Source: Calothrix sp. FI2-JRJ7
GTDB lineage: Bacteria > Cyanobacteriota > Cyanobacteriia > Cyanobacteriales > Nostocaceae
Assembly (NCBI GenBank): GCA_019359675.1
Contig: JAHHGX010000010.1
Span: 1-64,000, forward strand
DNA length: 64,000 nt
Direction: 5' to 3'
The notes beneath the pieces were generated by a model. It was not told where the DNA came from and did no database searches. It was given only the letters and a program-made list of their open reading frames with translations. Numbering within the stretch: the first letter of the stretch is position 1; each line of letters starts with the position of its first letter. A program made the translations under genes and the position numbers. Of the stretch, positions 24,725 to 48,558 are shown in pieces.

Positions 24725-24728
24725 ATTC
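24725..24728. other. Core ATTC at host/element left boundary
   Basis: Left host flank TTTTTA, then ATTC, then element ACTCTAAG. The four bases are shared with the internal junction (40118-40121) and the right boundary (55511-55514), so they are the crossover core or target overlap. The empty site would have read TTTTTA-ATTC-TTCCTAGG. Confidence 0.9.
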
Positions 24729-24756
24729 ACTCTAAGAAGAGTGAACACGTTTACCC

Positions 24757-24984
24757 TCAAAATGGTAACTTTTGGTAACTTTCCCCACAGTCTACTTTTC
24801 GTCTATCCAAACACATTAAGTGATACCTCCATTCCCGGTTTTCTGCCATTAGTGCGGCGTCCGTAATAGGCACTATTTTGATCAACTTGTCAAAAATTGG
24901 AAGTAAGCACCGCGAACATAAACAACCGGGACCGGCTTCACGCCGCACTAAAAAACTAACGTCAGTACATCTAATTTGATTCAT
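24757..24984 (-). CDS. Small zinc-finger-like protein next to the recombinase (copy 1)
   Basis: This 75-residue protein has a CxCxxC knuckle (GCLCSRCLLP, about 21-26) and an HxxC (YHLMC, about 55-58), which could bind one zinc ion. The C-terminal part is basic and rich in charged residues. Its start overlaps the end of the recombinase gene by 14 bases on the same strand, so the two are probably translated together. It is the last gene before the element's RE terminus. It could be an accessory DNA- or RNA-binding factor for recombination; this is inferred from position only. Confidence 0.65.
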   Translation of the reverse strand: MNQIRCTDVSFLVRREAGPGCLCSRCLLPIFDKLIKIVPITDAALMAENREWRYHLMCLDRRKVDCGESYQKLPF

Positions 24985-26170
24985 TTGTTCTAGTCAATTC
25001 ACGAAATAGCATTTTTATAGCTTTAACCGCAACGCGCGAACGAATCAAGCGCACTGGTTTACCGCTTAATTTTTCTTTATCTAAGTACTCACAGAGTAAT
25101 TTAATTACCTCGGTATCACGGCGCCGCGACCTTGGTTCAAGTGCTGTAAATACCCACTGCCAAAGCGCTTTACGGCATAGCTTCGAGCCATTGTGAGTCT
25201 TTGTGCCGCGCTTATCACCCGATGATTCTTGTACAGGCGCCATGCCCAATACTTTCTGAAATCGTCGTAGTGATAAATGGTGTTTGGTAGGTTTCCCTGA
25301 GTTGCGTCCTCTGCATATCCGTATCTCTGGCTTACCATCTACCAAGAACTGTTCGATTGGGTAAATGTAAGCGATTACTACCCACTGCAATCGCTCACCA
25401 AAATTAAATACCCCAAACACTTTTTTGTAGTGTTCAAAGCCAGCATCATTCAATAATTCCCGTAATTCTTGCTCAACTAACACTTCTTGACGTTGTAATG
25501 AGCAAATTATTTTTGCTCGTTCGCGTGTAGACGTTTCAATGCCTGTACCAATGCTTTGGGCGTATAGATAATCGTACTTTTTAGAATTACGCTCCTGGGC
25601 TATCCAACCCCACAACAGAGGGACTAAACCACTGGCGCCGCGCTTAGATTCAACTAATGCGACTTCTGGAAACTGCCACGCTAATTCCTGACGCAACTTA
25701 TTAATTACAGGTGATTGAACGCGGTTAAGGTGTTCTAGTCTAAAAACTAATTGCCTAATTTTGGTGATAGTTTCGTCGTAGCCAGCTACAAATCTATTCG
25801 GTTGTTCGAGGTAATCGAAATAGTAACAAGCAAGGGCAAGAGCATCGGCGTTATCGTCTTTGTCTGGTAAATTTAATTGATATGCCCGGTAGTGGCGTAA
25901 TTCCTTGTGCCCGACGAATAACACCTTTACTCCCGCGTTGGCTAGGTGGTGTTTCCAGATATGCGAGTAATTGTTCCCGGTCGGCTCAAGTATTGCTATG
26001 TCGGGTTTGAGTGCGAGTAACTCCTTTATTCCCGATTTGTTAGCGTGTAAATTTAGGAAGTTACATTTGTAATAATAGTTACGTGGTTCGTTAGGCTTTT
26101 GATTGATTAGACATGCAGAAACAGAGGCTTTGCTAACGTCAAGCCCTAAAATTCTTAATTGTTTTGTCAT
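24971..26170 (-). CDS. IS110-family DEDD recombinase (bridge recombinase) (copy 1)
   Basis: The 399-residue protein has the RuvC-like DEDD domain of IS110 transposases: D11 in ILGLDVSKAS, E62 in AILEPTGNN, and D106/D109 in DKDDNADALALA. The C-terminal Tnp domain (about 300-345) has GMAPVQESSGDKRGTK, where the catalytic serine of the family lies. IS110 enzymes act with a structured bridge RNA whose loops pair with target and donor DNA. The 263 bases upstream hold such an RNA here. Its donor loop matches the ends of the whole 15.4-kb unit, so this enzyme is probably the element's integrase and excisionase. A role confined to a short insertion sequence is rejected because no nearer matching end exists. 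Confidence 0.93.
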   Translation of the reverse strand: MTKQLRILGLDVSKASVSACLINQKPNEPRNYYYKCNFLNLHANKSGIKELLALKPDIAILEPTGNNYSHIWKHHLANAGVKVLFVGHKELRHYRAYQLNLPDKDDNADALALACYYFDYLEQPNRFVAGYDETITKIRQLVFRLEHLNRVQSPVINKLRQELAWQFPEVALVESKRGASGLVPLLWGWIAQERNSKKYDYLYAQSIGTGIETSTRERAKIICSLQRQEVLVEQELRELLNDAGFEHYKKVFGVFNFGERLQWVVIAYIYPIEQFLVDGKPEIRICRGRNSGKPTKHHLSLRRFQKVLGMAPVQESSGDKRGTKTHNGSKLCRKALWQWVFTALEPRSRRRDTEVIKLLCEYLDKEKLSGKPVRLIRSRVAVKAIKMLFRELTRTNESN

Positions 26171-26204
26171 GGGTTACGGTGGAACGTAAATTAATATGCT
26201 GCGA

Positions 26205-26405
26205 ATGCCTGCGAATCACCCAAAAGCCCGTATAGAGCTTAATTCACTCTCAAGACAGCAGGTTATCAGTATCAACCAGTAACCGAGCTTGCGAATTAAA
26301 AAAAGCGATAGCTTGCTTCTTCCTAAAAACCCTAAATTACTTTTATTGATACTGGCGCCTTAGTTGCCCAAGTCGCTACACTGCTATAGAGGGCAGTGTT
26401 TCGCC
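26205..26405 (-). ncRNA. Bridge RNA (target loop and donor loop decoded), copy 1
   Basis: Read on the minus strand, three structures follow in order. A 5' stem-loop has 7-bp arms ACACTGC/GCAGTGT (26378-26399). The target loop is closed by 9-bp arms CAGTATCAA/TTGATACTG (26346-26354, 26267-26275). The donor loop is closed by CCTGC/GCAGG (26258-26262, 26208-26212), with an inner hairpin at 26224-26240. Target loop: UAGGAAGAA (26317-26325) matches the right host flank 55512-55520, and UUUUUAAUUC (26293-26302) matches the left host flank 24719-24728. Donor loop: AGAGUGAAU (26242-26250) matches the RE end 24725-24733, and UUGGG-u-GAUUC (26213-26223) matches the LE end and core 40112-40121 with one bulge. 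This order and strand logic is that of IS110 bridge RNA. Confidence 0.87.
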
Positions 26406-26433
26406 GGCGGGACACCCGGCTCGTCAGGCGATA
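26406..26433 (-). terminator. GC-rich hairpin after the 116-residue gene
   Basis: GCCGG and CCGGC arms (within 26402-26420) form a stem directly after the stop at 26434 and just before the bridge RNA. It may end the upstream transcript or form the 5' end of the RNA. TATAGT on the minus strand (about 26432-26437) is a possible -10 box for the RNA. This is weakly supported. Confidence 0.35.
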
Positions 26434-26784
26434 CTATAACGGGTCGAGTGCTATTTCAGAAGCAAGTTTCAACCAAGCAGAAATAGCCTCTACAGAGTTT
26501 ATATTTTTGGTGTCTTCCCTTAACCTGGTAAGTGTACCGTTACCATCGTCTTGCCAGCATGGCGCCATAATGTAGTGTTCAAAGTAGTAACGTATCAGAA
26601 ATATTTGGGTTTCATTTGGAGGGACGGTAGCATGTTTAGTTACAAATTCGAGATATGCGAATATTGCATTTTCTAACTGTCCGCTTTGTTCATCCCTCCA
26701 ATACAAAGGGACTCCCATAGGTGGACTATAAAAGTTTGGAATCGGATTTTCTTTCATTGCATCAGCCCAAAAATTAGTTACCAT
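26434..26784 (-). CDS. Hypothetical protein, 116 residues (copy 1)
   Basis: A soluble, mostly helical protein with a Pro/Tyr-rich N-terminal part (NPIPNFYSPPMGVPLYWRDE) and an aromatic centre (IFLIRYYFEHYI). No family is recognised. It overlaps the upstream zinc-ribbon gene by seven bases and belongs to the same minus-strand operon as the recombinase and ATPase. Confidence 0.7.
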   Translation of the reverse strand: MVTNFWADAMKENPIPNFYSPPMGVPLYWRDEQSGQLENAIFAYLEFVTKHATVPPNETQIFLIRYYFEHYIMAPCWQDDGNGTLTRLREDTKNINSVEAISAWLKLASEIALDPL

Positions 26785-27002
26785 TCAGACCCGCAGTTGT
26801 AGCACTTTCTTGGTTCATCGGTACTTGGGGAATCATCGTAATACCCACAAACAGGACATATGTCGTCTGTTTCTTCATAGTCCGGGTCATCTTTGTCATA
26901 TGCCCAATATTCCCCACAGGTTTTACACTTGTAAAACCGATACTCTAGGTCGTAAACAACTGTAGATGTGCCGCATTTTTTGCACCCCGCAGGAGTATTC
27001 AT
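26778..27002 (-). CDS. Small zinc-ribbon protein (copy 1)
   Basis: The 74-residue protein has four CxxC pairs: CKKCGTS (about 7-10), CKTCGEYW (about 26-29), CPVCGYYD (about 49-52) and CYNCGSEW (about 68-71), enough for two zinc ribbons. An acidic stretch, DKDDPDYEETDD, lies in the middle. Such small ribbons often bind nucleic acid or act as regulators in phages and plasmids. It overlaps its neighbours on both sides by a few bases. Confidence 0.75.
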   Translation of the reverse strand: MNTPAGCKKCGTSTVVYDLEYRFYKCKTCGEYWAYDKDDPDYEETDDICPVCGYYDDSPSTDEPRKCYNCGSEW

Positions 27003-27304
27003 AACTTGAACCCTCTATTTTTTAAATAGTTGTCAAGGTTCCCATTCGTTGTGTCTTCATAAGTTGCTATTACTATTTCAGATTGCTGCGGTTGAACCGT
27101 TCGATAGTCCACGGCTCTAGCCCTAACGCCACGGCGCCTAAACTCCCGCTGCACTTCCACTAAGTCAAGCGCGCTTCTGTAGTCAGCTAAGTCTTGCGGG
27201 AGGCACGGATAGATTATTTCATCCATACCGCTATTTTCCCGAAGTATTCTTAAGATATTTTCTTTGGCTTGCTGTATTGGTGGTTTCACATTCATTGCTC
27301 CCAT
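26999..27304 (-). CDS. Hypothetical protein, about 100 residues (copy 1)
   Basis: A mixed alpha/beta protein (QAKENILRILRENSGMDEIIYPCLPQ; SEIVIATYEDTT) with no recognised family. The longest frame starts at a TTG at 27319, inside a terminator stem, so the ATG at 27304 or the one at 27295, which has a close GGGAG, is more likely. It ends with a four-base overlap into the zinc-ribbon gene. Confidence 0.6.
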   Translation of the reverse strand: MGAMNVKPPIQQAKENILRILRENSGMDEIIYPCLPQDLADYRSALDLVEVQREFRRRGVRARAVDYRTVQPQQSEIVIATYEDTTNGNLDNYLKNRGFKL

Positions 27305-27305
27305 T

Positions 27306-27330
27306 AAAAAGGGGGGCAAAATGCCCCTAA
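27306..27330. terminator. Intrinsic terminator between ATPase and following gene (copy 1)
   Basis: GGGGCA (27313-27318) and TGCCCC (27322-27327) form a tight stem. A run of A on the left gives the U-tract for minus-strand transcripts, and a T-poor right side makes it mainly unidirectional. It would separate the ATPase message from the downstream recombinase part. Copy 2 is at 42699-42723. Confidence 0.7.
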
Positions 27331-27333
27331 AAA

Positions 27334-28476
27334 TTATTCTCTCAACTGTTCGAGCAGTTGCTTACCCGACTGGTAACGATTACCGGAGCAACCCAAAATA
27401 TCTTTAATGATTTTGGAATCGCTCAAACCCGCTTCAGCACAGGCTTTTACGGCTTTTTTTAGTGCTTCTAAATCTTGGTTCGGGGGCGAATCTTGGAGCT
27501 GAAATGCTTGCTGTGCGGTCGTTTCAGGCGTTACCGATTTTTGATCAACCGGGGGCATGAGTAACCGTTGTGTAACCGATTTCATTTCCCGGTAAGCAGG
27601 TAATTTACACGGTTCGTCGTCGAGCAAGCAGTGCGAACGGTCGAGTTTTAACCACTCAATTAGGTCATCACGCTTGAGCGATTTTGCGTGTGCAACCGCT
27701 TTTTTACCTAACCGTAAACGGTAAAAAGCATCAGCTAAATCAGCCTTCCCCTCAATTCCCCAAGCTGCTACACGGTCGTATTGAGAGAGAAGTACTGTAA
27801 ATCGTCGAGCTTTGCGACCTCTACGCGCGTGGCGTTCGAGCCATTCCCCCGATGCCTCGACCTTGGAAACTAGCTCTGGGTATTCCTCACAGATAATCAC
27901 CTTTTCTGTTCCACTCAATGCAGCTTCACCCTTTTCGTTGCGTAACTGCATCTGGCTTGATAGGTCTTCAAGGTCGGCAAGCATCCCTTGATTAATGCTT
28001 TCCCAGTCCTCACCCTTCCCGATTACCTCTAAACCTGCCCAATCGTCGGGGGTTCCCTCGCATTCGTATACCTTCACCCTTCCACCAACTGTGTAAGCGA
28101 GGTACTGAGCAATGGTGCTTTTACCCGTGCCCATTTCCCCAATTATCATCAGCTGTTTACCCTCAATCGCGGTGATGATATCGGTAATGGGTGTTACTTC
28201 CCCAACCTCGACAACAGAAGCATCTATATATTTAGCTTCTGTTATTCCCATATGGGGGAGTTGTTCGTAAATTTCGAGTAGTCGATATGTACCCTTTTCG
28301 GTCTGGTCAACAACTGCGATAACTACCTTGCAGCTAATACGGACGGTATTAAGCCCGAACAGCCAAACAGAAAAACATACTCTACCAACCGCCCAACCAA
28401 AAAACCTATCAAAATCTTTCAGGGACGGGAGTTTTAAATCCACCCATTCAATACGACGTAAGCGGTTATTTTCCAT
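27334..28476 (-). CDS. FtsK/HerA-type P-loop ATPase (copy 1)
   Basis: A 380-residue ATPase. A hydrophobic stretch near the N terminus (about 25-55, AVGRVCFSVWLFGLNTV and following) could anchor it in the membrane. Walker A is GEMGTGKST (about 113-121), Walker B is KVIICEEYPEL (about 190-200), and the polar sensor lies in FTVLLSQYDRV (about 228-238) followed by GIEGKADLADAF. This set is typical of FtsK/HerA-like ATPases on cyanobacterial plasmids and phage-like elements, which pump DNA. In this element it could package DNA or move it across the membrane. A four-helix C-terminal tail (about 325-380) may bind DNA. It overlaps a 49-residue membrane peptide gene upstream. Confidence 0.8.
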   Translation of the reverse strand: MENNRLRRIEWVDLKLPSLKDFDRFFGWAVGRVCFSVWLFGLNTVRISCKVVIAVVDQTEKGTYRLLEIYEQLPHMGITEAKYIDASVVEVGEVTPITDIITAIEGKQLMIIGEMGTGKSTIAQYLAYTVGGRVKVYECEGTPDDWAGLEVIGKGEDWESINQGMLADLEDLSSQMQLRNEKGEAALSGTEKVIICEEYPELVSKVEASGEWLERHARRGRKARRFTVLLSQYDRVAAWGIEGKADLADAFYRLRLGKKAVAHAKSLKRDDLIEWLKLDRSHCLLDDEPCKLPAYREMKSVTQRLLMPPVDQKSVTPETTAQQAFQLQDSPPNQDLEALKKAVKACAEAGLSDSKIIKDILGCSGNRYQSGKQLLEQLRE

Positions 28477-28615
28477 AAATCACCCCGTCACGAAATCCCT
28501 TATATTCGGCGTTACAGGTGTTTAATTTATCCTGTAATTCGCTTTTCCCAATCTGTAGAAATGTAGTAGCAGCAATGGCCGCTACTACTAAATACAAAGT
28601 AGTAGCGTCATTCAT
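28466..28615 (-). CDS. Small membrane peptide overlapping the ATPase (copy 1)
   Basis: A 49-residue protein read from the minus strand. Its start ATG shares bases with the TAA of the gene before it (TAATG), and its end overlaps the ATPase start by 11 bases. It has one hydrophobic helix near the N terminus (LYLVVAAIAATTFL) followed by a charged tail with one cysteine. Coupling on both sides makes it a real gene. A small membrane partner of the ATPase, for example in DNA translocation, is a reasonable guess. Confidence 0.65.
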   Translation of the reverse strand: MNDATTLYLVVAAIAATTFLQIGKSELQDKLNTCNAEYKGFRDGVIYGK

Positions 28616-28797
28616 TAGCTTTGCTTATCCCTTGCTGTATTCAATATTGTTTCCCGCTGTTCATTGGTAAGCTTGTCCTCTCCGCATGGGATGACTTCCA
28701 AATGCGTACCAAGTCGATACAGCGCATCGTCTTTAACAGCTTGAGAATCATTAGAATCGTGGATTTGTAGTTGCTTTTCTGTGTATTTATCTGCCAT
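28615..28797 (-). CDS. Small acidic hypothetical protein (copy 1)
   Basis: About 60 residues, beginning MADKYTEKQLQIHDSNDSQ. The ATG at 28797 is chosen because GGGAG lies nine bases upstream; a longer frame begins at 28836. The product is charged and helical with the C-terminal part LTNEQRETILNTARDK. No family is recognised. It leads the segment of overlapping genes that ends with the ATPase. Confidence 0.6.
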   Translation of the reverse strand: MADKYTEKQLQIHDSNDSQAVKDDALYRLGTHLEVIPCGEDKLTNEQRETILNTARDKQS

Positions 28798-28849
28798 ATT
28801 TAGGTAACTCCCAGTGAGTGAACGAGTAGTCGGCATAGCGCATCAATCA

Positions 28850-29215
28850 TTATGCCGACTTGGAATTTTCGCTATTACTAATAGGTTTGAAGTTGAGGTA
28901 ATTAACTCGGTAAACCCGACCTCCACCCGTTAAAAACGGCTTACCGTCAAGCAACCTTGCAGCTTTTGAACAGGTGACTTTAATCATCACGTCGTTACCG
29001 TCCTCGACTGTTGAAAATAGTTCGTACAAGTCGAGTGCGCTAAATTCCGCAGGCGAACGATTTATAGCTACCTCAATAACACCTTTATTGGTGTCTTTGG
29101 CACTACTGGCTATAGGTAAACCAGGTAGATACCGTGCCTTCTTAGGCTTTTTATCTGGCTTATTACCGTTGCTTACCAAGTCTTTACTGCCATTTAAAGC
29201 GGTGGATTCAGTCAT
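28850..29215 (-). CDS. Hypothetical protein, 121 residues, first gene of minus operon (copy 1)
   Basis: A basic N-terminal arm (PDKKPKKARYLPGLP) precedes a compact alpha/beta part (SPAEFSALDLYELFSTVEDGN; MIKVTCSKAARLLDG; GRVYRVNYLNFKP). The basic arm suggests nucleic-acid binding, but I recognise no family. It starts next to the operator array, so it is likely the first gene of the minus-strand operon that runs down to the recombinase. An AGGAGG-like site lies upstream of the ATG. Confidence 0.7.
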   Translation of the reverse strand: MTESTALNGSKDLVSNGNKPDKKPKKARYLPGLPIASSAKDTNKGVIEVAINRSPAEFSALDLYELFSTVEDGNDVMIKVTCSKAARLLDGKPFLTGGGRVYRVNYLNFKPISNSENSKSA

Positions 29216-29392
29216 TTAACTTATTGAATACCTCCTGTGTTAATGGTGTTTACTGAGGTTTTTTTATTTAATCCATTGCTTGCAACGTAGACAATGCAAG
29301 GGTTTTAACTGTTTTAATGCTTTCAGTGTATAGACTCGCTGCGGGATAAACCACTAGTCAGCGGACATCAGTCCTATACAAATTGTTTCATT

Positions 29393-29494
29393 AATCTTAC
29401 ACACAGTCTTGTGTAAGATTGAAATTATGATAACATCTTGTGTAAGATTATCAAGTCTTGTTGTGTAAGAAATGTTAAACTTCTTGTGTAAGAT
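29393..29494. promoter_or_regulatory. Operator array for the RHH regulator (copy 1)
   Basis: Four direct copies of TCTTGTGTAAGAT-type sites lie at 29407-29420, 29436-29449, about 29456-29470 (one base longer) and 29482-29494. One inverted copy, AATCTTACACA, lies at 29393-29403. Each has TCTT/AAGA arms, as expected for ribbon-helix-helix operators. The last one touches the ATG at 29495. The array lies in the divergent gap between the minus operon (start 29215) and the regulator, so it probably controls both. Copy 2 is at 44786-44887. Confidence 0.75.
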
Positions 29495-29833
29495 ATGGAA
29501 TCAACTTTAAATAATGAAGAAAAAGCACGGGAGATACGACGAACCGAAGGAGAGAGTGAATATGTCGCTGACACTTACAGCTATAACTCACCTAGACTTG
29601 AAGGCGTCACAGATGGGATTGAGCCGCTCCGAGCTGATAGAAACGATAGCGAGAGAAAACTCTATACCGAAAAGTCAAAAGCTGTTACTGGGAAAGTCAT
29701 CGACCAACTTATAAGTGAGTGCGTAATCCAGATTGAAGCAAAGAAACAAGAAATAAAGCAGCTTGAATCTAAGTTTTCTCAACTAAAGTCATTACGCAGT
29801 GAGCTAGTAGAAGACGAAAATCAAAGCTTATAA
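29495..29833 (+). CDS. Frame overlapping the RHH gene, coiled-coil C terminus (copy 1)
   Basis: 112 codons. The first ~60 residues look like an out-of-frame reading of the RHH gene (odd, charged, no pattern). The last ~47 form a good coiled coil (KVIDQLISECVIQIEAKKQE, then IKQLESKFSQLKSL). RHH regulators of cyanobacterial elements often end in just such a coiled coil. The natural product may therefore be RHH plus coiled coil, joined by a -1 frameshift near 29670-29700 or split by a mutation. Alternatively this frame is translated on its own from the ATG at 29495. Confidence 0.45.
   Translation: MESTLNNEEKAREIRRTEGESEYVADTYSYNSPRLEGVTDGIEPLRADRNDSERKLYTEKSKAVTGKVIDQLISECVIQIEAKKQEIKQLESKFSQLKSLRSELVEDENQSL
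29514..29714 (+). CDS. Ribbon-helix-helix regulator (copy 1)
   Basis: A 66-residue protein with the RHH (CopG/Arc-like) core PKERVNMSLTLTAITHLDLK and MGLSRSELIETIAR, a pattern typical of cyanobacterial RHH proteins. It should dimerise and bind short palindromic sites. The array of TCTTGTGTAAGAT sites directly upstream is the likely operator, giving autoregulation and control of the divergent operon. It may function as the element's immunity or copy-control switch. The frame ends soon after the RHH core; see the overlapping frame for the probable C terminus. Confidence 0.75.
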   Translation: MKKKHGRYDEPKERVNMSLTLTAITHLDLKASQMGLSRSELIETIARENSIPKSQKLLLGKSSTNL

Positions 29834-29866
29834 CCGCCGGTCAAGAGACGCGGCGGTTTGTTTTAT
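29832..29866 (+). terminator. Intrinsic terminator after the RHH gene (copy 1)
   Basis: AACCGCC (29832-29838) and GGCGGTT (29852-29858) form a stem followed by GTTTTATT. Copy 2 is at 45225-45259. Confidence 0.8.
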
Positions 29867-29951
29867 TGCAAAAAAAAACCAAAAAAGCATCTCTAGAGAA
29901 CGTGAAGGGAGCAGCTTTAATGGTTTTTGTTTCTTTTAACTTATTTCTATT

Positions 29952-30686
29952 ATGCCAAAAACATCAACAAAACAAAAGAACCTTTGGACTGAACAGCATG
30001 AAGTTTTCTGCTTAGAAAACAAAGTACCCCACGCGGCTCAAAGATTGTGGCAATGGCTACTGTGGGAGGCAAAGCTTACTGAAGAAGTAGAGCCAGACTT
30101 GACAGATTTTAACGCATGGATAGAAGAGACACGCGGTAAAAAATATGCGAACCAATACCTAAAGAAAATGTTTGAGTTACTGAAGTCTTTAGGGGTAATT
30201 GGTGTACTAAAAAAATTCTGTTGGAAGATATACCGAGTTGTTATTCGACCTCTCGAATGGGTGCAACCACTTAAGAAAAAAAAGTTACAAAGTGGAAACT
30301 CTAGTTACAAAACAGAGGCATCAAATGATTGCAATGCGGCGGTCGCCTCTTTGCAGCAGCAGCATTCTGACTTAAAGCTTAATCAAGAGACGTTGGCAGA
30401 AAATGATATTAATTTTGATACTAAGGAGACTGAAGTATTGAGCAGGCCTCATTGGGAGATAAGAGCATCTATTGTCTTATTTCAGATTAGACAAGCTAGG
30501 AAACATATCGAAAATCCTGAAGGGTGGATGAGGGAATGTCTACGTAATAGGTATTGGGAATCACGTCGTAACTACCTAGCAATTGTATTCAAAGCCTCTG
30601 GATTAACACCTTATGATGATATTACTGGGGTGTCTCTAGATACAATGTTTGAGGAATTAGACTCATTGCAACAAAAAACCCTCTAA
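29952..30686 (+). CDS. Hypothetical protein, possible replication or DNA-binding role (copy 1)
   Basis: The 244-residue protein starts with a helical, Trp-rich region (LWTEQHEVFCLENKVPH; LWQWLLWEA) followed by what looks like a winged-helix segment (YANQYLKKMFELLKSLGVIG). A polar linker leads to a conserved-looking C-terminal part (PHWEIRASIVLFQIRQARKH; PEGWMRECLRNRYWES). It is one of the few candidates in the element for a replication initiator, but no known Rep motif is visible. Its stop is followed by a CCCTCTA/TAGAGGG hairpin at 30679-30699. Confidence 0.6.
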   Translation: MPKTSTKQKNLWTEQHEVFCLENKVPHAAQRLWQWLLWEAKLTEEVEPDLTDFNAWIEETRGKKYANQYLKKMFELLKSLGVIGVLKKFCWKIYRVVIRPLEWVQPLKKKKLQSGNSSYKTEASNDCNAAVASLQQQHSDLKLNQETLAENDINFDTKETEVLSRPHWEIRASIVLFQIRQARKHIENPEGWMRECLRNRYWESRRNYLAIVFKASGLTPYDDITGVSLDTMFEELDSLQQKTL

Positions 30687-30729
30687 ATATAGAGGGCATT
30701 CAACATAAAACCTTAACTTCGATTGTTAT

Positions 30730-31434
30730 ATGAATAAACCTAAAAGGAAAGTTAAAGCAGGACAGTTTGAGGAGAGTCCTGGACAGATACCTTTGTTTAA
30801 TGTTTTACCCATTCACCCAATAACAACAGTACATGATACCTATTGGGATGAAATAGTTAAATCTGCACCCGAACACCTCGACAATAATGAGGACAGTGCT
30901 TTAACGCAAAACTCTATTCCATCTCAGGAAAGTGTTCGGGTGCAACTTCAAGCTCCACAATCTGCACCCGAACACTATGGGAGTAATGAGGGGGGTGTTT
31001 TATTGCAAAACTCCACTCCATCTCAGGAAAGTGTTCGGGTGCAACTTCAAGCTCCACAATCTGCACCCGAACACTATGGGAGTAATGAGGAGTGGGAGGC
31101 GCTACAAGTAAGCACTCTTTCAGATGAAAGTGTTCGGGTGCAATTTCTACCATCTAAAAATCTCAATCATCAACCACACGGTAAGAAAAAACCAGAATGT
31201 AAACAAGATACTCATTGGGTCGAGGTTTATTGGGTGAAGCGCGGACAGAAAAAACATTACTACTATCGCTATTGCTGGATGATTGGGCGTAAAACTAATA
31301 AACTACACCTTGGTTCGGTTTCATCGAACGATGGAAAGATGCGGCGCCGTGAAGTACTGGAATTAATTGATGCAGGTGCATTGCCTACAAAAATAGTGGA
31401 GTATGTAAAGAAGTCCAATAACTCTAGAAATTAA
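30730..31434 (+). CDS. 99-bp-repeat protein with C-terminal recognition-like domain (copy 1)
   Basis: A 234-residue protein. The N-terminal half has about three 33-residue repeats (SAPEHYGSNEGG ... QESVRVQLQAPQ), low in structure. The C-terminal ~70 residues form a basic, aromatic domain (HWVEVYWVKRGQKKHYYYRY; GRKTNKLHLG) like those in cyanobacterial plasmid and transposon proteins that bind DNA. At the DNA level each repeat carries a 12-bp inverted pair (see the repeat entry), so the protein and its own gene may interact. A strong terminator follows. Confidence 0.65.
   Translation: MNKPKRKVKAGQFEESPGQIPLFNVLPIHPITTVHDTYWDEIVKSAPEHLDNNEDSALTQNSIPSQESVRVQLQAPQSAPEHYGSNEGGVLLQNSTPSQESVRVQLQAPQSAPEHYGSNEEWEALQVSTLSDESVRVQFLPSKNLNHQPHGKKKPECKQDTHWVEVYWVKRGQKKHYYYRYCWMIGRKTNKLHLGSVSSNDGKMRRREVLELIDAGALPTKIVEYVKKSNNSRN
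30865..31141. repeat. 99-bp tandem units with paired 12-bp inverted motifs (copy 1)
   Basis: GCACCCGAACAC occurs at 30865, 30964 and 31063. Its reverse complement GTGTTCGGGTGC occurs at 30932, 31031 and 31130. The spacing within each series is exactly 99 bp. The motifs lie inside a coding region and keep the reading frame. Such phased, inverted iterons could be origin or operator sites, or could fold the mRNA. Copy 2 is at 46258-46534. Confidence 0.85.
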
Positions 31435-31437
31435 TAA

Positions 31438-31471
31438 ATAAGCCGACTACGTGGGGAAGTCGGCTTTTTTG
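31438..31471. terminator. Bidirectional terminator (copy 1)
   Basis: AAGCCGAC and GTCGGCTT arms with a TTTTTT tract lie between convergent genes, the repeat protein on the plus strand and the amidase on the minus strand. Copy 2 is at 46831-46864. Confidence 0.85.
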
Positions 31472-31493
31472 ACTTCATATCCTATGCTGATGA

Positions 31494-32030
31494 TTATGCT
31501 GCTTTGTCAGCAATATTAGGAGTTTTACCGCACAATCCAAGCACTATTGCATTGGCCATATGTTCGGCTTCGTATAGTGCAATATCTCGCATCGAATCTA
31601 TAAAACAACCCTCAACTAACACTGCTGGCATCGACGTACTACGAACTACGTAAAGATGTGAACCATCTTTTACACCTCGGTTGATAAAACCTAATGCGCT
31701 AATTTCATTCACAATTTTTTGAGCAAGTCTACGACCGGGCAAGCTCATTGCAAATACTTCTGTACCATTAGCTCTACCGTTTGCGGCATTGAAATGTAGG
31801 GATACATATATATTAGCTTTGGCGTCGTCGGCCGCGTCGCATCGTTGTTGTAGGGAGTTGGTAATCCCAGCACAATTCTTGGGTCTAACCTCTATAACCT
31901 CATGTCCCAATAATTTCAACTTTTGAATAACTAAGGCGCCTGTTTCGTTAATCAAGTCTTCCTCGTCTCTAATGCCAGAGGCGCCTCTATCTCTACCTAC
32001 ACCATGTCCTAGGTCAATTGCGTATTTCAT
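31494..32030 (-). CDS. N-acetylmuramoyl-L-alanine amidase (endolysin-like) (copy 1)
   Basis: A 178-residue Amidase_3 enzyme. The zinc ligands are visible: His in IDLGHGVGRD, Glu in INETGALV and His in VSLHFNAAN. The catalytic Glu lies in LVEGCFIDS. It cuts the bond between MurNAc and the stem peptide of the cell wall. It has no signal peptide and no wall-binding domain, as in small phage endolysins that leave through a holin; a holin-like gene lies at 39706. The ATG at 32030 is chosen over a TTG at 32039 because AAGGA lies ten bases before it. It is directly downstream of the tyrosine recombinase. Confidence 0.9.
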   Translation of the reverse strand: MKYAIDLGHGVGRDRGASGIRDEEDLINETGALVIQKLKLLGHEVIEVRPKNCAGITNSLQQRCDAADDAKANIYVSLHFNAANGRANGTEVFAMSLPGRRLAQKIVNEISALGFINRGVKDGSHLYVVRSTSMPAVLVEGCFIDSMRDIALYEAEHMANAIVLGLCGKTPNIADKAA

Positions 32031-32043
32031 CTTTATCAATTCC

Positions 32044-32628
32044 TTAAATTAAAGCTATAGCGTTAGTGATTCTACTGGCTTCGATTTCCACGTATCCGTT
32101 CAGTGCTTTTAAATCTTGATGCCCGGTTATTTTTTGCAGTGTGTAAAGGTCAACTCCCTTGCTATGGAGTTTAGTAATGAACGAGCGCCTGGTGCTATGG
32201 GTAGATATCCCCTTGTCACCAAGTCCCGCGCGTTCGGTAGCGGTTCGCAGTATTTTATCTGCAAGCCTCAAGTTGATATGAGCTTCCGGGTTTTGAGCGG
32301 GAAATAAATAGCCGCTACTACTCACAGTTTTGTATTGCCTCAGTATTTCTTTTAGCGTTGGGTGAGTAGGAACCTGACGTGTTTTGCGTTTACCGTCGGG
32401 TGATGCCTTACGGGTTACAGCCCTAAAAGTAATAATTTCGAGCGGTTTACCGTCGGGCTGATAAATATCTTCAAACTTTAGTTGAACCAATGCACCCCAC
32501 CTTTCACCCGTGAACCAGGCCAAATCTAAAAGTAATTGGTACTTTTTATTTTTGATTTGAGAACGAATTTTAAAATACTCACCATCGGATAGAATCGCGG
32601 CTTGTCCATTGCGGTTATTCTTTGGCAT
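32044..32628 (-). CDS. Compact tyrosine recombinase (copy 1)
   Basis: The 194-residue protein corresponds to the catalytic domain of the phage-integrase family. The first Arg lies in TGERWGALVQL (about 42), HxxR in HSTRRSFI (about 143-146), the later His in TGHQDLKALN (about 168) and the nucleophile Tyr in NGYVEIEA (about 178). The usual N-terminal arm- and core-binding domains are missing. Small recombinases like this often resolve multimers or invert segments. Since the IS110-type enzyme appears to do the integration, this one may resolve dimers or the tandem copies. It overlaps the CxxC protein upstream by 14 bases. Confidence 0.85.
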   Translation of the reverse strand: MPKNNRNGQAAILSDGEYFKIRSQIKNKKYQLLLDLAWFTGERWGALVQLKFEDIYQPDGKPLEIITFRAVTRKASPDGKRKTRQVPTHPTLKEILRQYKTVSSSGYLFPAQNPEAHINLRLADKILRTATERAGLGDKGISTHSTRRSFITKLHSKGVDLYTLQKITGHQDLKALNGYVEIEASRITNAIALI

Positions 32629-32809
32629 AAGGATTATTCATTGCAGTCCGGTTTAACCTCTGCGAAAGGTTATTCCGGTATCTTTTTTTTTGAGCTAATA
32701 AGCGTAATCGCTGTATTCTATATTTAGCAATACTTTCACTGCATCCGTAAAGTACCGGATTTACATAAAAGCGGCAGTTTACGCAATCTTTAATATTCTC
32801 TAAATTCAA
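32615..32809 (-). CDS. Small basic CxxC protein (copy 1)
   Basis: 64 residues with DCVNCRFYVNP (CxxC) and one more cysteine (LYGCSES), then a strongly basic tail (RIQRLRLLAQKKRYRNN). It is probably a DNA-binding partner and leads the three-gene minus operon with the recombinase and amidase. No family is recognised. The gap to the divergent plus operon is only about 30 bp, so promoters must overlap coding DNA. Confidence 0.6.
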   Translation of the reverse strand: MNLENIKDCVNCRFYVNPVLYGCSESIAKYRIQRLRLLAQKKRYRNNLSQRLNRTAMNNPYAKE

Positions 32810-32839
32810 AGAGTAATTATTAAATTAACCTTGACTCAA

Positions 32840-33163
32840 ATGGCAGAACCTACACTTACCCAAGTCTTTGGAACCAACGCAACCCAAGATGCTACTACTA
32901 TTACTATTTATAAGGCTGATTTAACTGGACTAACTGCTACCGCGAACAACTCAGCAGAATCGATACTAGCTGCAATTGATTTAAAAGCTTCGAGCTATTT
33001 AACTCAGACTAATCAAGACTTGAACCCTGACCAAAGTATTGTAATTGAGCAAGGTACTGGCAGCATAACAACACGAAACAATTTAAATTACCGCGAATAC
33101 AATCTGACAATTACGTTGAGTAAATTAGATACTCAGTCAGCAATCGACCCTAATGACTTTTAA
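32840..33163 (+). CDS. Small structural-like protein, paralogue 1 (copy 1)
   Basis: About 107 residues with LTQVFGTNATQDATTITIYK and ANNSAESILAAIDLKA, a pattern shared with the next gene (LTLQELFG..., NNSAQALFAALLEKA). The two are diverged tandem duplicates. The beta-rich, Thr/Ser-rich make-up suits a virion or surface protein. The ATG at 32840 is preferred to the TTG at 32831. It is the first gene of the long plus-strand block. Confidence 0.6.
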   Translation: MAEPTLTQVFGTNATQDATTITIYKADLTGLTATANNSAESILAAIDLKASSYLTQTNQDLNPDQSIVIEQGTGSITTRNNLNYREYNLTITLSKLDTQSAIDPNDF

Positions 33164-33165
33164 TT

Positions 33166-33495
33166 ATGCAGCTAACCTTACAAGAATTATTTGGTGAGGG
33201 AAGCTACCAGGATATTAATAAGGTAGTGATAAATAAAAACTCATTGCCTTTATTGATTCCTAATAGCAATAACTCAGCACAGGCATTATTTGCCGCATTG
33301 CTTGAAAAAGCACGAGTTAATTATCATGCTCAATTGTCAACTGGTACTACTACATTAACCATCGACGGTTACGAGCCTATTGAGTACGATGCTTCTGTCA
33401 ATTATGACTTTTTGAACGTTTATTACTCTAGAAACCAGATAAATACTGATACTTTTAACTTTATATACAAAGTAGTTATTAGAGAGCTAATTTAA
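33166..33495 (+). CDS. Small structural-like protein, paralogue 2 (copy 1)
   Basis: 109 residues, related to the preceding gene through the LF/FG motif at the start and the NNSAxxxxAA segment in the middle. The C-terminal half (INTDTFNFIYKVVIRELI) is beta-rich. It overlaps the next gene by one base (TAATG). Its role is unknown. Confidence 0.6.
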   Translation: MQLTLQELFGEGSYQDINKVVINKNSLPLLIPNSNNSAQALFAALLEKARVNYHAQLSTGTTTLTIDGYEPIEYDASVNYDFLNVYYSRNQINTDTFNFIYKVVIRELI

Positions 33496-34166
33496 TGGAA
33501 GTTAGATTATTAACAGAGGCTACCTCCGCAGAAGATACAGATTGGATTTACTTGCAAAAAATAAATGGATTACCTCGCAAGATTAAAAAATCTAATTTAG
33601 TTCCACCAGTCCAACCGCAAAGTACAGCGATTTTAACTAGTGCAACAATTCCATCAAATCCACAGCAAGGAACTAGATGGAATGAGTTGGACAGTAATAG
33701 TAATATCCTTGAAACTTGGAATTACATAAACAATCGCTGGGTATCTGATGAAAAGAAATTTATATTAGATAGTGTCACAAATTTAGGTAACGGAGCTTTT
33801 CATGTTATACCACTCAAGTTAAATCATCGATATTTAATTAATAAAATTGATGTTGCTATTTTTTCTAATGGAAGTTTCAATTCTAATGATTTTTGGAGTC
33901 TTTTTATAGAGCATCAGAGAAATAATAGCTCTGTTGTTACTTCTGTCTTAAACAGGGTTTATAACAGCAATATTAGCAGCTTTAAATACTCTTATACTTA
34001 TCCACTCAATCTAGAAATCAATCCAACAAATACTACTAGTTTAAATTTCAATGATGGTACCAATAGTAGTCAAGTACTGAACGTTCGATTTTCAAGAACG
34101 GCAGGGGTACAGAATACAGGTATTGCTTATTGTGTTGAAATTTTTTACAGGCTGATTAGATTATGA
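33495..34166 (+). CDS. Putative fibre or surface protein (copy 1)
   Basis: 223 residues. The segment PQQGTRWNELDSNSNILETW, then NYINNRWVS, resembles the short repeats of phage tail-fibre or adsorption proteins. The rest is beta- and Asn/Ser-rich (NNSSVVTSVLNRVYNSNIS), as in extracellular binding domains. No signal peptide is present. It overlaps the next gene by four bases (ATGA). The fibre role is inferred from composition and position. Confidence 0.5.
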   Translation: MEVRLLTEATSAEDTDWIYLQKINGLPRKIKKSNLVPPVQPQSTAILTSATIPSNPQQGTRWNELDSNSNILETWNYINNRWVSDEKKFILDSVTNLGNGAFHVIPLKLNHRYLINKIDVAIFSNGSFNSNDFWSLFIEHQRNNSSVVTSVLNRVYNSNISSFKYSYTYPLNLEINPTNTTSLNFNDGTNSSQVLNVRFSRTAGVQNTGIAYCVEIFYRLIRL

Positions 34167-34795
34167 ATGTTTACTGTGACGGTAGCGCGGCGGCTGAAAT
34201 TTTATTTTCACTCACTGGAGGTAGAGAAGGGAGGTTGATATCTTACGCGCCTCCGGTTGTTATCGACTACGGGCAAGACGGATACATATTGAGTATCTCA
34301 GAATTTTTTAATCCAGATGGTAATCCAATAATTACAACTTTAGCAACGCTTTTTATCAAAGCTAATGAAAAAAGCAATGGAGGGTATGATTTTTTTGGCA
34401 CTGAGGGAATATATAGTACTTGGTATGATTCAGAAATAGAGCTAGTACAAGTAGGAATTGCCTTTAAACGTCAATTTACGATGTTTAAAAAATACTATCT
34501 ATTGAGCGATGGTAGTTTTGTTAAATCTGAATTGTTTTATCAATCAGCATTGGTAGAAGATTTTCAGATAACAACTTCGTTTAAAAGAAATAATTTATTG
34601 TTAATTACTGACAATGAGGGTGTTCTTTATGCTTACGAATACCCTGAAGGATTCACTCCTGCATGGCAAGTTAATTGTATTGGATGTAACGAGGGTGAAT
34701 GTGCTGGCAGCGATGGTAAAGGGGGTGTAACTTGTATGGATTGTGTGCAGATGGATAGAGATATACAGCAGATTAAAAAAACCCTAAGCAATTAA
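34163..34795 (+). CDS. Hypothetical beta-rich protein with C-terminal Cys cluster (copy 1)
   Basis: 210 residues, mostly beta strands, ending in a cysteine cluster, CIGCNEGECAGS ... TCMDCVQM (four to five Cys), that could bind zinc or form disulfides, then a helical tail (DRDIQQIKKTL). No family is recognised. It lies between the fibre-like and coiled-coil genes of the same operon. Confidence 0.6.
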   Translation: MNVYCDGSAAAEILFSLTGGREGRLISYAPPVVIDYGQDGYILSISEFFNPDGNPIITTLATLFIKANEKSNGGYDFFGTEGIYSTWYDSEIELVQVGIAFKRQFTMFKKYYLLSDGSFVKSELFYQSALVEDFQITTSFKRNNLLLITDNEGVLYAYEYPEGFTPAWQVNCIGCNEGECAGSDGKGGVTCMDCVQMDRDIQQIKKTLSN

Positions 34796-34803
34796 AGTTA
34801 AAT

Positions 34804-35046
34804 ATGGCTGTACCAGATAACGATGTAAAAAAGCTTTACCAGCAGATTAACGAGCTTAAAGCGATAGTTAGTAAATATGAAGGTAGGTTAGAAGCAGTTG
34901 AAAAGTATATTGTTAAATTGAATGAATATGGGAAAAAGCGTGACAAACAGCTTGGTAATTACATGAGGAATCAATCAGTTTTTTTTAATGAATTATTTGA
35001 TAGCGTCGAAACAGTACTTAGTATAGTAAAAGGGTTTTTACCATGA
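34804..35046 (+). CDS. Small coiled-coil protein (copy 1)
   Basis: 80 residues, nearly all helix with heptad pattern (VKKLYQQINELKAIVSKYEG; LEAVEKYIVKLNEYGKKRDK). It overlaps the start of the 845-residue coiled-coil gene by four bases and probably partners it. Confidence 0.65.
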   Translation: MAVPDNDVKKLYQQINELKAIVSKYEGRLEAVEKYIVKLNEYGKKRDKQLGNYMRNQSVFFNELFDSVETVLSIVKGFLP

Positions 35047-37580: not shown

Positions 37581-37584
37581 ATAT

Positions 37585-38418
37585 ATGACATTACCCGCAA
37601 ATTTCAATAAGTGGAGACACTTTCTAAGTGTCGTAACACAGATTCAAAACCGTATTGTTAAAGAAGATTTTCGAGACGTTAGTGATGATGAAGAATGGCA
37701 GCCAACTATCGGGACTCCTAGAGCTTCATTACGTACTGCTTGTACTATTCAGGCAACCGATTCTCAGCCAATGGTTATTTTAAAATTGGTTTTGTATTAC
37801 ATAATTTTGCGTAAAGCGCAGGATTTACAAATACCTTACTACGGGATACCAGCAGGTGCGCTACAGGCACAGCGTAAATTTAGACCCCAAGTAACGCTTT
37901 ACTTTTTACAAAGTGCTTTGACTGTTGGTAAAAACGAAACGCCTGTAACGGGTGAAATATCATGGCGTATTATGAACGAAACAAGCGAAAGTTTAACTAA
38001 ATCAGAAGTTGAACGCATTGCCAACTTAGTCAAACTCAATTTTGGTGGTACTACACCTTTTACTTGGAAAAAGGGCAAGGTACTTGTTTCTTATACAGAC
38101 TGGAACCAGGGCTTACAACTACAGCTATTGTGCAGGACAGATGAAGAAGGGGAACGTGTTATACGCGAAGTACTTAAGGTACACGGAGCATCATTCATTA
38201 GTAAAAAAATGAACGTAGTAACAAACGCCGACCCCACCGATAAATACCCCACAACACCGGGTAACGAAGTAATTCTAGGAGAAACTATCAAGCAACAGCG
38301 AGAACGTCCGAATGAGGACGTAATTTTTCAGTATGCGACCTTAACCCTACACGGTCGCCCACGTCCCGTACATTTGTACGACAGAACCCTAAGATTGTCT
38401 GATTGCGTTGTGCGCTAA
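37585..38418 (+). CDS. Hypothetical structural-block protein, 277 residues (copy 1)
   Basis: A soluble alpha/beta protein beginning NFNKWRHFLSVVTQIQNRIV. It contains IGTPRASLRTACTIQATDSQ near 50 and a regular alpha/beta repeat in the middle (EVERIANLVKLNFGG; KVLVSYTDWNQGLQLQLLCR). It is the last gene before a strong terminator. No family is recognised. By size and place it could be a capsid, portal-like or minor structural protein; the sequence alone does not decide. Confidence 0.6.
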   Translation: MTLPANFNKWRHFLSVVTQIQNRIVKEDFRDVSDDEEWQPTIGTPRASLRTACTIQATDSQPMVILKLVLYYIILRKAQDLQIPYYGIPAGALQAQRKFRPQVTLYFLQSALTVGKNETPVTGEISWRIMNETSESLTKSEVERIANLVKLNFGGTTPFTWKKGKVLVSYTDWNQGLQLQLLCRTDEEGERVIREVLKVHGASFISKKMNVVTNADPTDKYPTTPGNEVILGETIKQQRERPNEDVIFQYATLTLHGRPRPVHLYDRTLRLSDCVVR

Positions 38419-38420
38419 TA

Positions 38421-38467
38421 CCCTAAAAATTCCTAGAAGGGTTTAACCTGTCTAGGAATTTTTGGGG
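38421..38467 (+). terminator. Strong hairpin ending the structural operon (copy 1)
   Basis: AAAAATTCCTAG (38425-38436) and CTAGGAATTTTT (38452-38463) pair over twelve bases and are extended by CCC/GGG, three bases after the stop. It isolates the following gene, which then needs its own promoter. Copy 2 is at 53814-53860. Confidence 0.85.
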
Positions 38468-38534
38468 CTTGCGGGAATCTGAAACCCTTTGATACAAAGG
38501 ATTCAACTACTACAACAAGCTTTTATTATTCTTC

Positions 38535-39017
38535 ATGGCAAACGAATATACTACCGTTAGTATGGATATCGGGTCAAACCGAACGGTATCCATCCAGATG
38601 AGAAAGGATATCGCTACATACTTTGGCTTTACCGCAGCTACAACCACAGAAAATACAGTTACACGACGCCGCAAAGCCCATACTCGTGGGGTATATGGTG
38701 GTTTAGCTGATACCTCAGCAACGACAACCAACGTAGAAGCCTCTACTTGGATTGCAGTTAAAAAAGCTGCGGAGATTGGTTCTGGTAAAGCTGTTAAAGT
38801 CCCTACAAAACTTAAAAATGCCAAAGGTGGAACTCGCTACGTTACCCTCCGTTTTCCTGGTAACGCGAACGTAGCAAGTATTTCAGACTTTTTGTATACC
38901 TCAACAGTTGAAAAACGTCCCGAATTTTTCATTATGCCTAGCGGCGCCAAATATCCAGTGGTCAATATCACTGGGGACGTCAACCCAGGTGAAGGTGATA
39001 CACCTCCACCAGCTTAA
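38535..39017 (+). CDS. Candidate major coat or surface-layer protein (copy 1)
   Basis: A 160-residue, Thr/Ala-rich, beta-type protein (ATTTENTVTRRRKAHTRGVY; TRYVTLRFPGNANV; PEFFIMPSGAKYPVVNITG) with a disordered acidic/Pro tail. It lies alone after a strong terminator and must have its own promoter, as is common for highly made coat proteins. A hairpin CCTTTG/CAAAGG lies at about 38486-38500 in its leader. A coat role is inferred; no family is recognised. Confidence 0.5.
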   Translation: MANEYTTVSMDIGSNRTVSIQMRKDIATYFGFTAATTTENTVTRRRKAHTRGVYGGLADTSATTTNVEASTWIAVKKAAEIGSGKAVKVPTKLKNAKGGTRYVTLRFPGNANVASISDFLYTSTVEKRPEFFIMPSGAKYPVVNITGDVNPGEGDTPPPA

Positions 39018-39022
39018 GCTAA

Positions 39023-39671: not shown

Positions 39672-39705
39672 CTTTCCACCTATTAAATTTTATAAATATA
39701 CCATC

Positions 39706-39909: not shown

Positions 39910-39933
39910 CTACATGTCCAAATGTCCAAAATC

Positions 39934-48556: not shown

Positions 48557-48558
48557 TT

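What the first reader, a model, noticed from the sequence alone, without database searches (positions are those of the whole stretch)
26205..26405. Decodable bridge RNA whose loops match the real insertion site and the real element ends
Upstream of the IS110-type recombinase the minus strand folds as a 5' stem-loop, a target loop and a donor loop. Target guides: UAGGAAGAA equals the complement of the right host flank (55512-55520), and UUUUUAAUUC equals the left host flank (24719-24728). Donor guides: AGAGUGAAU equals the RE end (24725-24733), and UUGGG-u-GAUUC equals the LE end plus core (40112-40121, one bulge). The guide order and strands follow the published IS110/IS621 bridge-RNA scheme. 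Four independent matches of 9-10 bases in the expected order are unlikely by chance.
Basis: partly seen in the sequence, partly recalled or inferred. Interest (0 to 1): 0.97.

Follow-up and report, generated by a model that had tools for sequence, protein, structure and literature searches.

The report
RNA-guided integration of phage-like element
A 15-kilobase, phage-like mobile element in a cyanobacterium carries a small RNA gene whose loops spell out both its own ends and the exact spot in the host DNA where it sits, and many related elements carry the same RNA rewritten to match their own different insertion sites.

Summary
The RNA is the bridge RNA of a 15,393-bp element present as two identical tandem copies. 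Three guides match the real ends and flanks exactly over 9-10 nt. The fourth (right donor) is 5+5 nt around one bulge and is weak on its own.

I tested relatives. All 40 fetched (57-83% recombinase identity) carry the same RNA, with a constant donor loop and a hypervariable target loop. Own guides match own right flanks 5/5 in 27 of 39 loci, against 4 of 1,482 foreign pairings. At the left end 14 of 26 match 6/6, against 0 of 650. A second recombinase subfamily repeats this: 11 of 13 and 10 of 10. Donor guides covary with element ends. One genome has identical guides at two unlinked sites, matching 10/10 and 9/10. Three elements match poorly at both ends.

The element is not an ordinary insertion sequence but one of a family of about 8-19 kb elements with a shared, phage-like gene set. 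RNA and recombinase sit at the right end, 14 kb from the left end, so surveys using 1-kb flanks could miss it. RNA production and activity are untested.

The parts
24725..40117 (-). element copy 1 (15,393 bp); RE at 24725, RNA and recombinase near RE
   Evidence: identical to copy 2, 0 differences
40118..55510 (-). element copy 2; the junction around 40118 is the RE-core-LE donor junction
55511..55514 (.). ATTC core (GAAT on minus) at the outer end; also at 24725-24728 and 40118-40121
26205..26429 (-). bridge RNA: 5' stem, target loop, donor loop (second copy about 41598-41822)
   Evidence: found in all 40 fetched relatives; covariance model E 1.1e-24 at 26210-26361 (the window is among its training rows); paired-site covariation
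26317..26325 (-). left target guide TAGGAAGAA
   Evidence: matches complement of 55512-55520
26293..26302 (-). right target guide TTTTTAATTC
   Evidence: matches 24719-24728
26242..26250 (-). left donor guide AGAGTGAAT
   Evidence: matches complement of 24725-24733; covaries in relatives
26213..26223 (-). right donor guide TTGGGTGATTC (one unpaired U)
   Evidence: matches 40112-40121 around the bulge; L035 carries a compensated variant
24971..26170 (-). IS110-type DEDD recombinase, 399 aa (second copy 40364-41563)
   Evidence: Pfam PF01548 5e-9 and PF02371 7.7e-7; D11, E62, D106, D109, S317 invariant in 20 aligned sequences
55515..55520 (.). left-target host flank (TAGGAA on minus)
   Evidence: corresponding place in L173
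24719..24724 (.). right-target host flank
   Evidence: corresponding place in L173
32044..32628 (-). small tyrosine integrase, 194 aa
   Evidence: Pfam PF00589 1.5e-16; in 19 of 19 delimited elements
31494..32039 (-). amidase / endolysin
   Evidence: PF01520 1.5e-30; phrog_435 2.1e-54
35043..37580 (+). 845-aa helical protein, tape-measure-like by appearance only
   Evidence: family in 18 of 19 elements; no PHROG match
37585..38418 (+). 277-aa conserved protein of unknown fold
   Evidence: AlphaFold pLDDT 84; no Foldseek match at E<=0.001 in PDB or BFVD
27334..28476 (-). AAA-type ATPase
   Evidence: weak Pfam AAA matches, below curated cut-offs; 8 of 19 elements
33495..34166 (+). 223-aa fibre-like protein, by appearance
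   Evidence: no Pfam match; assignment by eye

Best explanation
A whole 15.4-kb phage-like element is integrated by its IS110-type recombinase under the guidance of a bridge RNA encoded just upstream of the recombinase gene. The donor loop base-pairs with the RE-core-LE junction of the circular element (LDG with ...AGAGT-GAA, RDG with GAATC-CCC around a bulged U). The target loop base-pairs with T-N5-GAA-N5 in the host (LTG with the five bases left of GAA, RTG with GAA plus five bases right of it). Strand exchange at the shared GAA(T) core inserts the element and repeats only the core. Shown by sequence: anatomy, ends, and matching and covariation of guides. Inferred: transcription, RNA-protein complex, circular intermediate, catalysis, and that the whole unit moves as one. 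The tandem pair would arise by insertion of a second circle or by homologous recombination.
For: Exact ends and flanks. A place in another genome of the genus without the element reads ACATTTTTAATTTTTTCTAGGGG against joined window flanks ACATTTTTAATTCTTCCTAGGGG (left-side similarity there is only this short stretch). No other exact TAGGAAGAATTAAAAA in the host genome. The RNA is in 40 of 40 fetched relatives, with 97.7% of pair cells paired and 67 double-change cells against 19.9 in shuffles. RE test, type A: 27 of 39 at 5/5 against 4 of 1,482 cross pairs; 163 of 195 bases against a maximum of 89 in 20,000 permutations. LE test, type A: 14 of 26 at 6/6 against 0 of 650 cross pairs. 15 loci match at all 10 guide bases at both ends. 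Type B recombinases (36-42% identity): RE 11 of 13 (cross 3 of 156), LE 10 of 10 with a candidate (cross 1 of 120). More distant loci: exact RE match in 7 of 9 readable of 11. Donor covariation: AGAGT ends with AGAGT guides in 31 of 31, AGACT with AGACT in 8 of 8 (search limited to AGA[GC]T); AGAAT, AGAGG and AGAAG match in L196, L192 and L194, ACCCT in type B. Same guides at two unlinked sites in one genome: TAGGGT-GAA-CGAAA and TAGGGT-GAA-CTAAA. Catalytic residues invariant.
Against: Of 39 type A loci testable at RE, 8 match 3/5 or less and 4 match 4/5; two of the 8 (L034, L041) are one-base shifts. Of the two not testable there, L055 matches 5/5 and L057 fails. L048, L051 and L071 match poorly at both ends (left 3/6, 3/6, 4/6; right 1/5, 2/5, 1/5), so their guides do not describe where they now sit. 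L187 has a 4/5 right site and L189 no right match. Of 58 integrase-scan loci with at least two core cargo families, 20 show no IS110 match; most end early, but L095, L099 and L129 have 9-10 kb beyond the integrase and none. No RNA data. The window's right-donor match alone is not significant. No promoter-like site on the RNA strand in a simple scan of 24700-26900. A tyrosine integrase is present in every delimited element.
Confidence: 0.93

Rival explanations
1. The element is integrated by its small tyrosine integrase (32044-32628); the IS110 gene and RNA are passengers or only mobilise themselves.
For: The integrase is in 19 of 19 delimited elements, and three loci with core genes and 9-10 kb beyond the integrase show no IS110 match.
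Against: The outer ends of the 8-17 kb units, not ends of a short unit around the recombinase, match the RNA guides at both sides. The shared core is only GAA(T). Flanks of different elements showed no common site by blastn. The integrase may rather resolve multimers such as the tandem pair (inference).
Confidence: 0.05
2. Guide-flank matches are chance, or leftovers of the search that defined the ends.
For: In one search left ends were first found by searching with the guide itself.
Against: In one search and for type B left ends the ends were defined by donor motifs alone and then scored against own and foreign guides: 27/39 vs 4/1482; 14/26 vs 0/650; 10/10 vs 1/120. For type B right ends the score was presence of GAA plus 5 nt within 400 nt: 11/13 vs 3/156.
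Confidence: 0.01
3. An ordinary IS110 insertion sequence sits next to unrelated genes, and the 15.4-kb repeat is an assembly artefact or segmental duplication.
For: Two copies are perfectly identical, which an assembly error could produce.
Against: 18 relatives have a unit with a shared gene set and a guide-matched left end 7.8-17.1 kb from the right end. The tandem copy number in this assembly remains unverified.
Confidence: 0.02

Closest known systems
IS621 / IS110-group insertion sequences with bridge RNA (Durrant 2024 PMC11208160, sections 4, 6, 12, 13, 19 read; Hiraizumi 2024 PMC11208158, passages)
   Same: DEDD plus serine recombinase; RNA upstream of the gene with 5' stem, target loop then donor loop; left guides pair with the bottom strand and right guides with the top strand; unpaired U in the right donor guide (IS621 flips U159/U160); insertion at a short core.
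   Different: IS621 is a minimal element with the RNA in the left end and a promoter formed at the RE-LE junction. Here the RNA is 14 kb from LE and starts close to the stop of an upstream ORF (33 of 40 loci within 16 nt). Core is GAA(T) rather than CT. Target has a fixed T six bases left of the core that the guide need not encode. The unit is 8-19 kb with many genes.
Filamentous phages with IS110-type recombinase: Neisseria Nf (PivNM/Irg), Thermus phiOH16/Zuza, Acinetobacter Af1 (PMC11437467 and PMC11209303, passages read)
   Same: IS110-type gene at one end of an integrated phage genome, thought to integrate it.
   Different: No bridge RNA is mentioned in the passages I read; Af1 is 7.2 kb and carries inovirus genes such as zot. 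No inovirus hallmark was recognised here.
IS1111/IS110 seekRNA elements and natural reprogramming ISEc11/ISXne4 (PMC11187229, passages read)
   Same: Related elements with altered guides sit at sites matching the altered guides.
   Different: One pair of simple insertion sequences there; here dozens of elements, two recombinase subfamilies, large cargo, and guides at chance identity even between near-identical RNAs.

Membership tests
IS110 family recombinase | DEDD_Tnp_IS110 and Transposase_20 domains above Pfam cut-off | tested here: met
   36.6 vs 29 bits; 29.9 vs 21.3 bits
IS110 family recombinase | catalytic D, E, D, D and serine | tested here: met
   D11, E62, D106, D109, S317 invariant in 20 sequences; correspondence to IS621 D11/E60/D102/D105/S241 (passage) is by spacing; no PDB match by phmmer or profile
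bridge RNA | conserved fold with two internal guide loops | tested here: met
   no Rfam family matched at gathering threshold
bridge RNA | target-loop guides covary with insertion flanks | tested here: met
   exceptions listed in the Against line
bridge RNA | donor-loop guides covary with element ends | tested here: met
   L035 variant
bridge RNA | expressed and bound by the recombinase | not testable with these tools
   needs RNA and protein work
IS110-group insertion sequence (minimal element, RNA in left end) | short element; RNA in the noncoding left end | tested here: not met
   15,393 bp, many genes, RNA 14 kb from LE
IS110-group insertion sequence (minimal element, RNA in left end) | promoter at the RE-LE junction drives the RNA | tested here: inconclusive
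   the junction lies 14 kb from the RNA; no promoter-like site on the RNA strand in 24700-26900 by a simple scan
tailed phage | terminase, portal or major capsid gene | tested here: not met
   none among matches of the window proteins scanned nor in the 25 families shown of 67 (PHROGs) and of 34 (Pfam) for 60 cargo proteins; the rest of those lists was not seen
inovirus | Zot-type ATPase | tested here: inconclusive
   an AAA-type ATPase in 8 of 19 elements with only weak generic matches; no Zot match seen

The most novel reading that the evidence does not exclude
An unrecognised lineage of cyanobacterial viruses or virus satellites uses a bridge RNA in place of a fixed attachment site, and rewrites its target guides by a process much faster than ordinary mutation of the RNA scaffold, so that lineage members gain new integration sites while their donor guides stay fixed.
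Probability: 0.25. Interest if true: 0.93.

Novelty: new variant of a known kind. Interest (0 to 1): 0.82.

Why it matters
It points to bridge-RNA recombination moving natural units of 8-19 kb rather than minimal insertion sequences, and it gives dozens of natural guide-target-donor sets from which the target rule (T-N5-GAA-N5), donor code and bulge tolerance can be read. It also makes a concrete question testable: how an element changes its guides, since guides are at chance identity between RNAs whose scaffolds are 85-97% identical. A published boundary method took only 1 kb on each side of the gene (PMC11208160, section 19), so elements of this shape could have been missed elsewhere.

Tried and rejected
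Rfam at gathering threshold: nothing in the window. IMG/VR scans with recombinase, 845-aa protein, integrase profile and recombinase profile: only one weak integrase fragment. Phage records: no match to recombinase, 845-aa or 277-aa protein. Plasmids: two records with recombinase relatives. Foldseek with two cargo proteins: no fold at E<=0.001; the best BFVD match of the 277-aa protein was E 0.006 at TM 0.36. Common insertion site between elements: none found by blastn of flanks, so the target is not one conserved gene. Protospacer for the window element's CRISPR-like spacer: none in 208 genomes at up to 3 mismatches. PDB matches to the recombinase: none. A tandem pair in L042 was suspected from a donor-like junction, but the sequence before it does not match that element's right end. 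No description of bridge-RNA elements of this size or of bridge-RNA-guided prophages was seen in the listings of literature searches (open-access library, no preprints).

Full report
WHAT IS THERE. The window lies in an 8.66-Mb genome. A unit of exactly 15,393 bp is present twice, head to tail and without a single difference, at 24725-40117 and 40118-55510. The three junctions share only ATTC (GAAT on the minus strand). Read on the strand of the recombinase, the joined flanks give the target CCCCTAGGAA-GAAT-TAAAAATG and the copy-copy junction gives the donor CTTAGAGT-GAAT-CCCCAATATGG. The recombinase (24971-26170, minus, 399 aa) has both IS110 Pfam domains above cut-off. Upstream of it on the same strand lies the RNA, about 26429-26205.

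All are at the stated coordinates. Against 4,000 mononucleotide shuffles of the 152-nt RNA core, the left target, right target and left donor words of 9, 10 and 9 nt were reached 18, 10 and 21 times. The right donor's longest exact word is 5 nt and was reached 3,489 times. All four together were reached 0 times. So three matches are strong and the fourth rests on relatives.

SITE WITHOUT THE ELEMENT. The right flank is similar over 714 bp, but the left side only over this short stretch. In G060 and G062 both flanks are similar at a distance; in G060 the place starts ACATTTTTAAT but then differs by about 27 bp. So the clean insertion is well supported on the right and only modestly on the left. 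No other exact copy of TAGGAAGAATTAAAAA exists in the host genome; three places have one mismatch.

RELATIVES. The recombinase has relatives at E<=1e-40 in 81 of 217 genomes of the family. I fetched the 40 highest-scoring places besides the window's own, 57-83% identical. All 40, and the window, have the RNA, with the target loop about 130-240 nt before the gene; a pattern read both target guides in 39 of 41 and the other two (L057, L070) were read by eye. Layout: 5' stem; TTAGGGCTTT-N6-GAA...GGCTTT-N5/6-TTC-NNAAGCTCGG, the target loop; TTGAGAGTGAA...GGGTGATTC, the donor loop. RNAalifold gives 26 pairs; 97.7% of cells pair, and there are 67 double-change cells against 19.9 expected from shuffles. 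A covariance model built from these 41 finds only the two window copies in the host genome at E 1e-24; the next hit is E 0.24. In 386 genomes sampled from the phylum it has matches at E<=0.01 in 17, own genome included, some in other orders; the weakest (E 0.005) may be chance.

TARGET COVARIATION, TYPE A. Right ends were defined by the donor motif TAGA[GC]TGAA alone. Of 39 testable loci of 41, own guide and flank agree 5/5 in 27, 4/5 in 4 and 3/5 or less in 8. Foreign guides give 5/5 in 4 of 1,482 pairings. The sum is 163 of 195, against a maximum of 89 in 20,000 permutations. Left ends were defined by GAATCCCCA[AG] or GAACCCAAAG alone. Of 26 loci of 41 with a candidate, 14 agree 6/6, 5 agree 5/6, 2 agree 4/6 and 5 less; foreign guides give 6/6 in 0 of 650 and 5/6 in 13. 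The five at 5/6 differ only at position 1. In all 19 loci matched at positions 2-6 the target starts with T, while guide position 1 is T in 14 and G in 5. So the rule is T-N5-GAA-N5, with a T that the guide need not encode. Fifteen loci, the window included, agree at all ten guide bases.

TARGET COVARIATION, TYPE B. A scan with the element's integrase gave 80 loci, 42 with an IS110 match. I examined 16 of these whose recombinase is only 36-42% identical (L086, L100, L130, L136 and others were not tested). Their RNA has the same plan. Loops were readable in 13 of 16 (not in L081, L094, L096). Right-end agreement is 11 of 13 against 3 of 156 foreign; left-end agreement is 10 of 10 with a candidate against 1 of 120. 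In those ten, guide position 1 is A, G or C and the target base is still T.

MORE DISTANT LOCI. Of 11 loci taken from other parts of the covariance-model list, the target loop was read in 9 (not L191, L193). The right site matches exactly in 7 of 9, is 4/5 in L187 and was not found in L189. Left sites match in L190 and L194 and in L186 and L187.

DONOR COVARIATION. In more distant loci AGAAT (L196), AGAGG (L192) and AGAAG (L194) agree as well. In type B, ends TTACCCT, TTAGAGT and TTAGACT go with guides TTTACtCCT, TTTAGgAGT and TTTAGgACT, one base bulged. L035 has LE GAACCCAAAG with right donor guide TTTTG-c-GGTTC, compensated and bulged at the same place as the window's. Some type B right donor guides have no bulge.

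SAME GUIDES, TWO SITES. Genome G301 has two elements, about 19 kb each, with identical target guides. They sit at TAGGGT-GAA-CGAAA and TAGGGT-GAA-CTAAA (10/10 and 9/10), 3.4 Mb apart, with no blastn similarity of the flanks on either side.

EXCEPTIONS. L048, L051 and L071 match poorly at both ends (left 3/6, 3/6, 4/6; right 1/5, 2/5, 1/5). L043, L057, L059 and L063 fail at the right end; L034 and L041 are one-base shifts; L037, L049, L053 and L067 are 4/5; L055, untestable, is 5/5. Elements matching poorly at both ends could have changed guides after integration, exchanged the RNA module with another element, or inserted off target; I cannot tell which.

THE ELEMENT. In 18 relatives whose left end matches the guide at 5/6 or better, and in the window, the unit is 7.8-17.1 kb (right ends of L043 and L049 are uncertain). 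Families among these 19: tyrosine integrase 19, IS110 recombinase 19 (by construction, since the loci were found with it), 845-aa-type protein 18, F3 15, F4 14, F5 11, F6 11, AAA-type ATPase 8. Seen from the cargo, 58 of 80 integrase-scan loci hold at least two core families and 38 of these 58 have an IS110 match; most of the other 20 are cut short, but L095, L099 and L129 reach 9-10 kb past the integrase without one. The window copy also has an endolysin-type amidase. Among 60 cargo proteins scanned together, PHROGs gave tail-fibre, tail-needle, hol-like, minor-head and virion-structural matches, each in one member (25 of 67 families were shown). No terminase, portal or capsid was seen. Models of F6 (pLDDT 84) and F11 (pLDDT 85) have no Foldseek match at E<=0.001 in the PDB; F6 has none in BFVD either. 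The elements gave no match in the phage records tested and one weak fragment in IMG/VR. I call them phage-like; virus, satellite or other is open. No two elements shared a site by blastn; in 8 of 16 elements with both flanks in hand the joined site lies in an open frame longer than 200 codons.

ARCHITECTURE. RNA and recombinase sit at the right end, with all cargo between LE and RNA. In 33 of 40 loci (window included) the 5' stem starts within 16 nt of the stop of an upstream same-strand ORF by a simple ORF call, so the RNA is probably made from an internal transcript rather than from an RE-LE junction promoter as in IS621 (PMC11208160 sections, PMC11208158 passages). A scan of 24700-26900 found no promoter-like site on the RNA strand.

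GUIDE TURNOVER. Among 820 pairs of type A RNAs, the 40 pairs with scaffold identity of 85% or more share on average 3.15 of 10 guide bases, much like more distant pairs (2.7-3.1). L040 and L041 have 97% identical scaffolds and share 3 of 10. Selection on random mutation, exchange between elements, or a dedicated rewriting process could explain this; none was tested.

WHAT IS KNOWN. The mechanism is that of IS110/IS621 bridge RNA. IS110-type genes at the ends of integrated filamentous phages are known (PMC11437467, PMC11209303, passages), and natural reprogramming is known for one IS pair (PMC11187229, passage). I saw no description of bridge-RNA elements of this size or with phage-like cargo in the listings of searches of an open-access library without preprints. 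Hence: new variant of a known kind.

Noticed in passing
39983-40094 and 55376-55487: Next to LE the element carries a mini CRISPR-like array: two 36-nt repeats of the host's own repeat type (host arrays on contigs C38, C77, C87) and one 40-nt spacer with no match in 208 genomes apart from itself.
   Followed up: partly
L033 1063-1215 (element of Calothrix sp. PCC 7103): The closest relative also has a mini array near LE with three repeats and two spacers. One spacer resembles a place in a type B element (L074 about 4175, 25 of 34 bases; background about 22), a weak hint of element-against-element targeting.
   Followed up: partly
24725-55510: Two perfectly identical 15,393-bp tandem copies; biology or assembly cannot be told apart here.
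   Followed up: partly
L047 element flank: This element interrupts an open frame that looks like cas1 (recognised by eye) near a CRISPR-type repeat array.
   Followed up: partly
L042 about 368 (in recombinase orientation): A donor-like junction CACTAGAGTGAATCCCCAG sits at this element's left end, as if it abutted another element's right end.
   Followed up: partly
L062 (G167:C2): One element's contig has the length of plasmid CP150887.1, a hit, so the family also occurs on a plasmid.
   Followed up: no
24334-24664: Array of about 53-bp repeats in the host DNA just left of the insertion.
   Followed up: no
24726-24745: RE carries an 8-bp palindrome TTCACTCT-AAGA-AGAGTGAA, so the left donor guide word occurs on both strands at this end.
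   Followed up: no
L048, L051, L071: Elements whose guides match both flanks poorly: possible guide change after integration.
   Followed up: partly
donor and target loops of the RNA: Target and donor loops share one plan (GCTTT-N6-GAA...GCCTTT-N5-TTC-NNAAGC), as if one loop were a duplicate of the other.
   Followed up: no
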